Below are positions 30,442 to 33,671 of a stretch of DNA of 64,000 bases, piece by piece; the stretch's first letter is position 1, and each line of letters opens with the position of its first letter. Origin of the DNA: Elusimicrobia bacterium GWA2_62_23 (GTDB taxonomy: Bacteria > Elusimicrobiota > Elusimicrobia > Elusimicrobiales > UBA9959); contig MGTV01000010.1 in assembly GCA_001799635.1 (NCBI GenBank), forward strand, positions 108,228-172,227. The letters are read 5' to 3'. The position numbers and the translations under genes are program-made. The notes below the pieces were generated by a model, which was not told the origin of the DNA, searched no databases, and worked only from the letters and a program-made list of their open reading frames with translations.

Positions 30442-30479
30442 AAATTTTAGGGGTATATACCGGACACACCGGTAACATA

Positions 30480-31667
30480 TTATACCGGATACATAGGTAA
30501 CACTTTGAGCCCAAAGGGATTCCCGATGGGCTCAAATCTTTTATCCTCCAGATCAAAATACCCCAGGTCATAGTCCATAAACGTCACCAGCCATATTCCT
30601 TCCCCGACCTCTTTGATCCCGACGTGCTGCCCGGCCAGCGGCTTGCACAGATTAATCTTCTTTTTCCCCATGCAGATCCTACCGCAATGCGTCACCAGGA
30701 CCGTCTTATCGTGGAACGGATACTCCGGGGTGATCAATCCCCGGTATGGCTTTACCGAGGGCGTATACACCTCTCCCGGGCATTTCATCCCCAGCGCCTC
30801 GTGCGGCCTCTCGCTATTGAATTCATCAACGAATTCGTCGAACCGCGCCTGCTGCTGCAGAAAATTCTCTCCCGGCGGCCTCGTGGTCTCTTTCTTCAGC
30901 GTCAGATGCATCCGCTCGTGCCGCCCGTTCTGCTGCGGGTTCCCTGGCTTGATACGCTCTATATCAATACCGAGCCTCAACCACCACACTGAAAGTTTAC
31001 TGAGCTGGAACAACGCCCCAGGCGAGGCAAAAGGCACGCCATTGTCGGTACGGATGGCCCTCGGCAGCCCACGCTCCCTGAATACACGCTCGAACACGCC
31101 GAACGAGGGGTTCTCTTTGGTTGTCTCAAGGGCCTCGCAGGCCAAGATGTACCGGCTCGCCTGATCCGTTATCGTCAGCGGGTAGCAGTAGCGCCTGTCG
31201 CCCATCATGAATTCGCCCTTGAAGTCCGCGCACCATAAGTCGTTAGGCTGCCGCCCCTCCGACAGCGGCGTCCCTGTTGCCCTGTTCCTTCTGCGGCCGC
31301 GTCTGGTCACCAGCCCGTGCCTGTCCAGCACCGCGTGCACGGTGCTTTTGGCGGGCGGTTTTATTTCTGGATATTTGCGAAGGATCAGTTCCCTGATCTT
31401 CGGCGCGCCCCAGTGGGGTTTCTCCTGCTTCAGTTTCAGGATGGTGTGCTCCACCTGGACCGGCAACTGATTGGCGTAGCGGTACGGCCGGCGGCTCCGG
31501 TCGGCGAAAGATTGCGCGCCGCTCATACAGTACCTGTTCCAGAACTTATACCCGGTCTTCCGGGAGATGCCGTACTCGCGGCACAACGAGCTCATCTGCT
31601 CCCCGTCCAGCAGCCTTACCACGAATTTCATTCTTTCGTCCATAACAGAATATTCCTTCCATGGCAT
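30480..31667 (-). CDS. IS481-like family transposase (HTH + DDE integrase core)
   Basis: HTH (VVRLLDGEQMSSLCREYGISRKTGYKFWNRY) and integrase core (LWCADFKGEF, AIRTDNGVPF, NGRHERMHLTLKKE). Start MPWKEYSV at 31667. Confidence 0.85.
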   Translation of the reverse strand: MPWKEYSVMDERMKFVVRLLDGEQMSSLCREYGISRKTGYKFWNRYCMSGAQSFADRSRRPYRYANQLPVQVEHTILKLKQEKPHWGAPKIRELILRKYPEIKPPAKSTVHAVLDRHGLVTRRGRRRNRATGTPLSEGRQPNDLWCADFKGEFMMGDRRYCYPLTITDQASRYILACEALETTKENPSFGVFERVFRERGLPRAIRTDNGVPFASPGALFQLSKLSVWWLRLGIDIERIKPGNPQQNGRHERMHLTLKKETTRPPGENFLQQQARFDEFVDEFNSERPHEALGMKCPGEVYTPSVKPYRGLITPEYPFHDKTVLVTHCGRICMGKKKINLCKPLAGQHVGIKEVGEGIWLVTFMDYDLGYFDLEDKRFEPIGNPFGLKVLPMYPV

Positions 31668-31690
31668 AGGTGACCTCCTGGTCCTATGCC
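31663..31690 (-). promoter_or_regulatory. Hairpin sequestering the transposase start codon, SD in the loop
   Basis: GGCATAGG-accaggaggtca-CCTATGCC (minus strand); the start ATG lies in the 3' arm and AGGAGG in the loop. Confidence 0.6.
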
Positions 31691-31724
31691 AGAATTGTAA
31701 CCTATGTGTCCGGTATAGACTCCT

Positions 31725-31966
31725 GTATGCCATGTTGGCACATACTAACACGTTGCAAATTAGTATGAAAGTGTGTATGCTATGTCAACACATACTAATG
31801 CATTGCAAATTAGTATGAAAGTGCGTGTCACATGTCAGCACATACTAATCTATTGCAAATTAGTATGAAATAGTGTATACTATGTCAACACATACTAATC
31901 CATTAAAAATTAGTATGTCTTGGTACATGTTATTCAATATGTGCTAATTCGTCGCAAATTGGCATA
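31725..31966. repeat. Array of five 27-bp palindromic sites at 50-bp period
   Basis: CATACTAAT-N9-ATTAGTATG-type sites at 31741-31767, 31791-31817, 31841-31867, 31891-31917 and a degenerate one at 31940-31966; linkers also similar (gaaagtgtgtatgctatgtcaaca). Confidence 0.9.
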
Positions 31967-31996
31967 GAAAGCGTGTATAGTGAGGGCTATAAATAT

Positions 31997-33340
31997 ATGC
32001 AAATACCCGAAAATCCTCCAGACTTTATCCAAATGTTTAAGGACAATTCCGATGTTGTAAAAGAACTTTTAAAGCCAGAAGTCAGAAATCTTGTCGATAA
32101 AAGCATAAGGGAGTACCCATATTGGAGCAAGTTTAAATATTGGCAAATGCCTGCTGGGTTAACCCCTGAAATCGCCTGGGTTTTGAGAGAGTTTTTGGCT
32201 ATAGGTGAGCGGAAAAATATTCCGTTGCGGGATACGAAATCCCAACCGTTCTCGTATTGGTTGCCAGATTCGGCTCAAGAGACGTTGCATAATATTGACC
32301 GGCAAAATCCAGGCGAAAAATCTTTTACTGGTGAGATCCCGTCTCCGCAAGAGAGAGACCGATATATAGTTAGTTCATTGATGGAAGAAGCTATTGCCTC
32401 AAGTCAAATTGAGGGTGCTGCAACAACACGGCGAGTGGCAAAAGAGATGCTTAGAACGGGGCGTCCTCCGGCCAATAAATCGGAGAAGATGATTTTGAAC
32501 AACTATCGGGCCATGGAGCGGCTCCGTGAGTTGAAAAAACATCCTCTTACCCTTGAAGTCCTGAACGAATTGCACGTAATACTTACAGAAGGCACCTTGG
32601 ACGATGAGGCGGCTTCTGGTCGGTTACGGCAAAGTCCGAAGGATGATGACGTTTGTGTGTATGATGATGAAAACAATATTATTCATCGTCCTCCCAATGG
32701 GGATGAATTGCCCGCGCGTCTTGATGTGTTTTTAAAATTCGCGAACGATGAGGATTCGCGACATTTTATCCACCCAGTAGTAAAAGCCATACTTCTGCAT
32801 TTTTGGATAGGGTACATTCATCCATATGTTGACGGAAATGGAAGAACTGCAAGAGCGGTGTTTTATTGGTATTTATTGAGAAAAGGTTATTGGCTATTTG
32901 AGTTCGTGTCGCTATCCCGAATGGTTCTTCGGGCGTGGAAGCAATACGCCAGGGCCTTTGTGTATTCAGAGCGTGCTGGAAATGATGTTACCTATTTCAT
33001 AATGTTCAATCTTCAGGCAATTCAGTTGGCAGTAGGAGAGGTCCATCGGTATATAAACAAAAAACAGGCGGAAATCAATCAGGCGGCTACACTGTTAAGG
33101 GGTGTCGACGATTTTAATAGAAGGCAGAGAGAGCTGCTTCTTGATGCACTTAGGAAGCCAGGAAGAATATATTCGATCTACAATCACCAAAAAATACACA
33201 GCATATCTTACCAGAGTGCGCGAACGGATTTGCTGGATTTGGTGGCGAAGAAGTTGTTCCATGTTTCGAAATCCGGGAAAACCCATGAGTTTATGGCAGT
33301 CAATAATCTGCGCGAATTAATTGATGCAAAGAATCAGTGA
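31997..33340 (+). CDS. Fic-domain protein with autoinhibitory motif and predicted C-terminal winged helix
   Basis: HPYVDGNGRTAR Fic motif; ASSQIEGA matches the (S/T)xxxE(G/N) inhibitory motif; C-terminal NRRQRELLLDALRKPGRIYSIYNHQKIHSISYQSARTDLLDLVAKKLFHVSKSGKTHEF. Start ATG 31997 preferred over GTG 31973. Confidence 0.9.
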   Translation: MQIPENPPDFIQMFKDNSDVVKELLKPEVRNLVDKSIREYPYWSKFKYWQMPAGLTPEIAWVLREFLAIGERKNIPLRDTKSQPFSYWLPDSAQETLHNIDRQNPGEKSFTGEIPSPQERDRYIVSSLMEEAIASSQIEGAATTRRVAKEMLRTGRPPANKSEKMILNNYRAMERLRELKKHPLTLEVLNELHVILTEGTLDDEAASGRLRQSPKDDDVCVYDDENNIIHRPPNGDELPARLDVFLKFANDEDSRHFIHPVVKAILLHFWIGYIHPYVDGNGRTARAVFYWYLLRKGYWLFEFVSLSRMVLRAWKQYARAFVYSERAGNDVTYFIMFNLQAIQLAVGEVHRYINKKQAEINQAATLLRGVDDFNRRQRELLLDALRKPGRIYSIYNHQKIHSISYQSARTDLLDLVAKKLFHVSKSGKTHEFMAVNNLRELIDAKNQ

Positions 33341-33671
33341 TAGATGGGTGAGGTGTGCGGCGTTGATGTCTGTTGGGTGTCCAAACTGGCAAAGTGGCAA
33401 AACGGAATTGGCAGGCATTGCGAGGTCCGGCTGACCCTGGTCTGGCTGTAGTGATATTGGCCCCTTGGCGCATACCGGGACACTCTGACCTTAGGATAGG
33501 GCCGCCCCGCGGCCCCTTATATATAAATACCTATGAGATGGGGGGGATGCGGGCCAGAGGGCCCAGGGAGGGCCTATGCGCAGACCTAGGCCCCGGGTAG
33601 GCATTAATACGGCGCTGCTCTGGGCCTATGGCCTCTTATGAAAAGGCCGCGTTTACGTTAAACTATTGGTA

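What the first reader, a model, noticed from the sequence alone, without database searches (positions are those of the whole stretch)
31725..33340. Five palindromic sites at 50-bp period directly upstream of a Fic gene with its own winged helix: candidate autoregulated Fic module
Seen: 27-bp sites CATACTAAT-N9-ATTAGTATG start at 31741, 31791, 31841, 31891 and (degenerate) 31940, so the period is 50, 50, 50, 49 bp, close to five helical turns. The arms are perfect 9-bp inverted repeats in copies 2-4, with one mismatch in copy 1. The array ends about 30 bp before the Fic start. Established: class II Fic proteins carry an N-terminal (S/T)xxxE(G/N) inhibitory motif (here SSQIEG) and often a C-terminal winged helix. 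Inference: the Fic protein, or a partner, binds the array cooperatively and couples AMPylation state to its own expression. I know of no described Fic system with such a phased operator array.
Basis: partly seen in the sequence, partly recalled or inferred. Interest (0 to 1): 0.85.

Follow-up and report, generated by a model that had tools for sequence, protein, structure and literature searches.

The report
Fic enzyme reading its own operators
A Fic enzyme (a kind that usually tags other proteins with AMP) carries a DNA-reading domain whose contact residues match the palindromes in front of its own gene, in relatives from bacteria to archaea, so the gene very probably controls itself and travels with its own switch.

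Summary
The array is real: four 27-bp palindromes (9-bp arms, 9-bp spacer) plus a degenerate fifth, period 50/50/50/49, ending 30 bp before the Fic ATG; no copy elsewhere in the genome. It is not a private curiosity. I collected 111 non-redundant relatives from bacteria and archaea; most carry palindromes of the same 9-N9-9 geometry just upstream of fic, usually two, typically 46-52 bp apart, but with different half-site letters. Those letters track the recognition helix of each protein's own winged helix. In a blind scan of 3969 residue/base pairs the strongest link is Q406 with half-site bases 5 and 6; Y405 links to base 4. Residues 405-406 predict bases 4-6 in 37 of 45 cases from donors under 50% identical, the best of 389 adjacent residue pairs. 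YQTAR goes with TACTAAT, YATAR with TATCAAT, RATAR with TGTCAAT. One precedent, CccR, is published, so the principle is known; the widely conserved multi-operator design and the code appear new. The window's five-site array is an expanded version. Coupling to AMPylation is untested. All evidence is computational.

The parts
31741..31767 (.). operator 1, CATACTAAC-N9-ATTAGTATG, one arm mismatch
31791..31817 (.). operator 2, perfect 9-bp arms
31841..31867 (.). operator 3, perfect 9-bp arms
31891..31917 (.). operator 4, perfect 9-bp arms
31940..31966 (.). operator 5, degenerate (7 of 9 arm pairs), nearest to the gene
31997..33340 (+). fic gene, class II Fic enzyme of 447 aa with C-terminal winged helix (GTG 31973 is an alternative, less likely start)
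33074..33337 (+). winged-helix domain, residues 360-447
33209..33247 (+). codons of the recognition helix, residues 405-417 (YQSARTDLLDLVA); residues 405, 406 and 410 covary with the half-sites
31853..31881 (+). weak promoter-like match TTGCAA-17-TATACT inside a repeat unit; no better than shuffles

Best explanation
The array is a set of operators for the Fic protein itself. The protein binds each palindrome, probably as a dimer, through its C-terminal DeoR-like winged helix; residues 405, 406 and 410 at the start of the recognition helix help to choose bases 4-6 of each 9-base half-site. Because family operators sit on or next to the likely promoter and the start of fic, binding most likely represses fic (negative autoregulation). 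The usual family form is two operators about 50 bp apart; the window's copy has grown to five by tandem duplication of the 50-bp unit. The gene moves between genomes as a one-gene cassette with its own switch. Shown computationally: the sites, the conserved geometry, the specificity code, the absence of other targets. Inferred: dimer binding, repression, cooperativity. Untested: any link between DNA binding and AMP transfer.
For: Sites. Family: 59 of 107 members have a strict 9-N9-9 dyad within 200 nt upstream, against 20 for an 8-bp spacer and a mean of 6.4 in shuffles; distant Fic genes 5 of 31 (scan of spacer lengths). Blind covariation scan of 441 columns x 9 bases: Q406 with bases 5 and 6 are the top two by mutual information; Y405 with base 4 and T410 with bases 5 and 6 also stand out. 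Prediction from donors under 50% identical: 37 of 45 from residues 405-406, best of 389 adjacent pairs, against 11 of 68 for the nearest relative under 50%. Class table: YQ 30 of 33 with TACTAAT and 1 with TATCAAT; YA 0 of 20 with TACTAAT and 18 with TATCAAT; RA 4 of 4 with TGTCAAT; YDV/YDI 5 of 6 with TACTTGT. All 12 exact TACTAAT-N9-ATTAGTA sites found in 8 genomes lie at fic (coordinates compared). No conserved neighbour gene. Winged helix in the model and DeoR-type HTH hits. Precedent: CccR represses its own promoter through its HTH (PMC9755527).
Against: No binding or expression data exist for this family. Tree-controlled independent pairs go the right way (Q to A against base 5: about 4 to 0) but are too few for significance. 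35 of 111 members gave no operator at the blind threshold. The window's nearest relatives (L006, L007, L008, L086) have YQTAR yet CCTAAT half-sites, so other residues also matter. The window's own promoter is not clear.
Confidence: 0.83

Rival explanations
1. The Fic protein binds the array but activates its own gene, or uses the array mainly as a storage site (sponge) or as an allosteric ligand that alters its enzyme activity, rather than to repress transcription.
For: The recognition code shows reading, not the sign of the effect. CbFic2 changes activity on DNA binding (PMC10628234). Most window operators lie 80-250 bp upstream of the start.
Against: In relatives the proximal operator centre lies typically 30 bp before the start and overlaps or adjoins promoter-like boxes; the one tested precedent, CccR, represses.
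Confidence: 0.12
2. A different regulator encoded elsewhere binds the sites, and the Fic protein does not.
For: No direct binding data; some members lack a detectable site.
Against: Half-site letters follow the Fic protein's own recognition helix in unrelated lineages; no neighbour gene is conserved; exact sites do not occur elsewhere in the genomes tested, odd for a general regulator.
Confidence: 0.03
3. The palindromes are a dispersed DNA repeat, part of the adjacent IS481 element, or RNA hairpins (terminator or attenuator).
For: An IS481-type element ends right at the array; the sites are palindromes.
Against: IS copies elsewhere in the genus end before the array (L113); no other copy in the genome; no terminator-like site; the letters follow a protein helix.
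Confidence: 0.01

Closest known systems
CccR of Yersinia pseudotuberculosis (PMC9755527)
   Same: Fic domain plus C-terminal HTH; binds palindromic DNA at its own promoter as a dimer and represses itself.
   Different: One 46-nt site with 10-bp arms and a 26-bp spacer, against usually 2 and up to 5 sites with 9-bp arms and a 9-bp spacer here; 380 aa against 447; CccR is a secreted effector, for which nothing was seen or tested here.
CbFic2 of Coxiella burnetii (PMC10628234, PDB 8cil)
   Same: Class II Fic with a DeoR-type winged helix; binds DNA; detectable relative by sequence and fold.
   Different: Tested with random DNA only; no operator described; about 20% identity.
SoFic (PDB 3eqx; NCBIfam NF046030; PADLOC SoFic)
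   Same: Fic domain followed by a C-terminal domain of similar fold; PADLOC model matches residues 122-440 at 2.5e-45.
   Different: NCBIfam SoFic score 64 against a cut-off of 550; DNA binding by SoFic had not been shown according to the CbFic2 authors.

Membership tests
Fic/DOC family, class II | Pfam Fic domain PF02661 above gathering score | tested here: met
   65.3 bits against 24
Fic/DOC family, class II | Fic motif HPFx(D/E)GNGRxxR | tested here: met
   HPYVDGNGRTAR at residues 275-286; H275, P276, G280-R283 and R286 invariant in 36 members; Y in place of F
Fic/DOC family, class II | inhibitory motif (S/T)xxxE(G/N) N-terminal to the Fic core | tested here: met
   S135-S-Q-I-E139-G140; S135, S136 and E139 invariant in 36 members
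Fic/DOC family, class II | AMP transfer to a protein target | not testable with these tools
   needs biochemistry
SoFic | NCBIfam SoFic equivalog cut-off (550 bits) | tested here: not met
   64.1 bits
SoFic | anti-phage defence | not testable with these tools
   PADLOC SoFic model matches at 2.5e-45, without a curated cut-off
CccR-type autoregulating Fic-HTH protein | C-terminal HTH fused to a Fic domain | tested here: met
   model residues 359-447 match a winged-helix structure (2d1h, Z 11.8, rmsd 2.0, 87 residues); HTH_DeoR in 15 of 36 members
CccR-type autoregulating Fic-HTH protein | palindromic site upstream of its own gene, read by its own HTH | tested here: met
   sites and recognition-helix covariation; computational only
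CccR-type autoregulating Fic-HTH protein | operator of the AGATAATCAT-N26-ATGATAATCT type | tested here: not met
   9-N9-9 geometry with other letters
CccR-type autoregulating Fic-HTH protein | autorepression measured | not testable with these tools
   needs a reporter assay

The most novel reading that the evidence does not exclude
A family of Fic enzymes spread over bacteria and archaea are self-addressed transcription factors: each carries a private multi-operator switch whose letters follow a simple recognition-helix code that changes quickly, keeping copies from cross-talking, and binding to the array also sets the catalytic state, so that promoter occupancy and AMP transfer are one switch.
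Probability: 0.2. Interest if true: 0.85.

Novelty: new variant of a known kind. Interest (0 to 1): 0.64.

Why it matters
Many Fic enzymes carry an HTH domain, but in the papers found here only CccR has a mapped operator. This work gives dozens of predicted protein-operator pairs, a testable two-residue DNA code, and single-gene cassettes that carry their own switch across bacteria and archaea. What the winged helix of a Fic protein is for becomes directly testable, and the protein-operator pairs could serve as orthogonal regulatory parts.

Tried and rejected
Exact window-type sites in 101 related genomes: apart from the own genome one match with 2 mismatches in an AT-rich genome; the geometry, not the letters, is conserved. 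Strict helical phasing: only weak periodicity (R about 0.3). A partner gene: the commonest neighbour family occurs in 6 of 111 flanks. IS481 as source of the array: rejected. RNA terminator: none found. A clear promoter in the window: one weak match, no more than shuffles give. Tree-controlled pair test: right direction, too few independent pairs for significance. Searches with the wrong frame or an unsuitable handle failed and were repeated. Paper searches for a Fic operator array found only CccR and, for DNA binding, CbFic2.

Full report
The observation. Four 27-bp palindromes at 31741, 31791, 31841 and 31891 match CATACTAAT-N9-ATTAGTATG with at most one mismatch, where 100 shuffles of the window give none. 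A fifth, degenerate copy lies at 31940-31966. The repeat units are 83-86% alike beyond the palindromes, so they probably arose by tandem duplication. The genome holds no other copy. The Fic start is most likely ATG 31997, supported by the shared N-terminus of the family.

The gene. The 447-aa protein has a Pfam Fic domain, a complete Fic motif and an N-terminal inhibitory motif, both conserved in 36 relatives. The AlphaFold2 model (mean pLDDT 90) ends in a winged helix: residues 359-447 match a solved winged-helix protein at Z 11.8, and 15 of 36 relatives hit HTH_DeoR. The closest solved folds are other Fic proteins, among them SoFic and CbFic2. It falls far below the SoFic equivalog cut-off.

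The setting. The gene and an IS481-type element (transposase) lie between a tRNA-Gly and a conserved downstream gene. In the related genomes G025 and G030 the tRNA and that gene lie about 150-290 bp apart with no fic between them, so the module is an acquisition not shared by the relatives searched. IS sequence in a relative (L113) stops matching at the position equivalent to 31717; the array starts right there and is not part of the IS, which may have cut off further units (inference). A same-class genome (G234, locus L085) carries the same upstream sequence as L008, whose record is named uncultured Elusimicrobia, so the host is most likely an Elusimicrobiota bacterium.

Family-wide operators. 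Relatives came from genome contigs, the phylum of the window, other groups and viral contigs: 111 non-redundant members. Dyads with an odd spacer near 9-13 bp are strongly enriched upstream of fic, those with an even spacer much less. 59 of 107 members have a strict 9-N9-9 dyad, against 20 with an 8-bp spacer and 6.4 in shuffles; distant Fic genes show 5 of 31. With class-specific motifs 69 loci have sites, 43 of them two and 13 three; a few of the extra sites are weak. Spacing clusters at 46-52 bp and the proximal centre lies at a median of 30 bp before the start. Members with sites include Bacteroidota, Gammaproteobacteria, Actinomycetota, archaea and candidate phyla.

The recognition code. 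Sites were chosen without looking at the protein; 76 members had one. Mutual information was computed between 441 alignment columns and the 9 half-site bases. The two highest of 3969 pairs are Q406 with bases 5 and 6; Y405 with base 4 and T410 with bases 5 and 6 also stand out by z-score. All lie on the recognition helix (residues 405-417). By z-score alone one nearly invariant column (P233) ranks first with negligible mutual information (0.06), a small-sample effect. Residues 405-406 predict bases 4-6 from donors under 50% identical in 37 of 45 cases; the nearest relative under 50% does so in 11 of 68, and no other adjacent residue pair of 389 does as well, the four runners-up (404, 409, 406, 410) being in or next to the same helix. 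The classes are YQ with TACTAAT, YA with TATCAAT, RA with TGTCAAT, RQ and TQ with TGCTAAT, NQ with TCCTAAT, YD with TACCAAT, YDV and YDI with TACTTG, NF and NY with CGAGAT; the smaller classes rest on one to four members. Close relatives with different helices have different operators, for example L041 and L042, 78% identical. Independent pairs on a tree built without the winged helix agree in direction but are few.

Specificity and effect. In eight genomes all 12 exact TACTAAT-N9-ATTAGTA sites lie at fic, by comparison of coordinates with the loci, so no wider regulon with this exact site is seen. No neighbour gene is conserved. In Elusimicrobiota relatives a TTGACA-17-TATCCT match has its -10 box inside the proximal operator and its -35 box just after the distal one; in several members of the YA class the -35-like TTGATA is the arm of the distal operator. 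This favours repression (inference). Promoter boxes are consensus matches only, and the window itself shows only one weak match.

Known comparison. CccR represses its own gene through its HTH and a palindrome with a 26-bp spacer (PMC9755527). CbFic2 binds DNA without a known site (PMC10628234). The principle is thus known; the conserved multi-operator design, its spread and the code were not found described, within an open-access library only.

Limits. Everything here is computation on public sequence. Repression, dimer binding, cooperativity and any link to AMP transfer remain to be measured. About a third of members gave no site at the blind threshold, and the window's nearest relatives break the simple code at base 4.

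Noticed in passing
family operators upstream of fic, e.g. L092, L018, L009-L011: A third half-site often sits in the spacer exactly 10 bp (one helical turn) from an outer half-site: 26 seen against 6.2 expected with shuffled spacers. The window's own sites lack it. It may point to more than one dimer per operator.
   Followed up: partly
L111 (G004:C45) 1830-1900: A same-genus genome keeps only about the last 24 codons of a close fic homologue (79% identical), a remnant of the same kind of cassette.
   Followed up: partly
window 30442-33540; L110, L112: The stretch after tRNA-Gly is variable in the genus: IS481 plus fic here, 150-290 bp of other sequence elsewhere; L110 shows two short inverted copies of the tRNA 3' end there.
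   Followed up: partly
window 30452-31717: An IS481-type element (transposase 30480-31751 on the - strand as called) abuts the array; the ORF's reported start runs past the IS end into the first repeat.
   Followed up: partly
G000:C33:802-1455, G000:C12:37635-38144, G000:C8:23075-23446: The genome encodes at least three further, distant Fic genes.
   Followed up: no
L041, L042, L044: Gracilibacteria members were full length only with TGA read as glycine (table 25), and carry their own operators; L041 and L042 are 78% identical but have different half-sites.
   Followed up: partly
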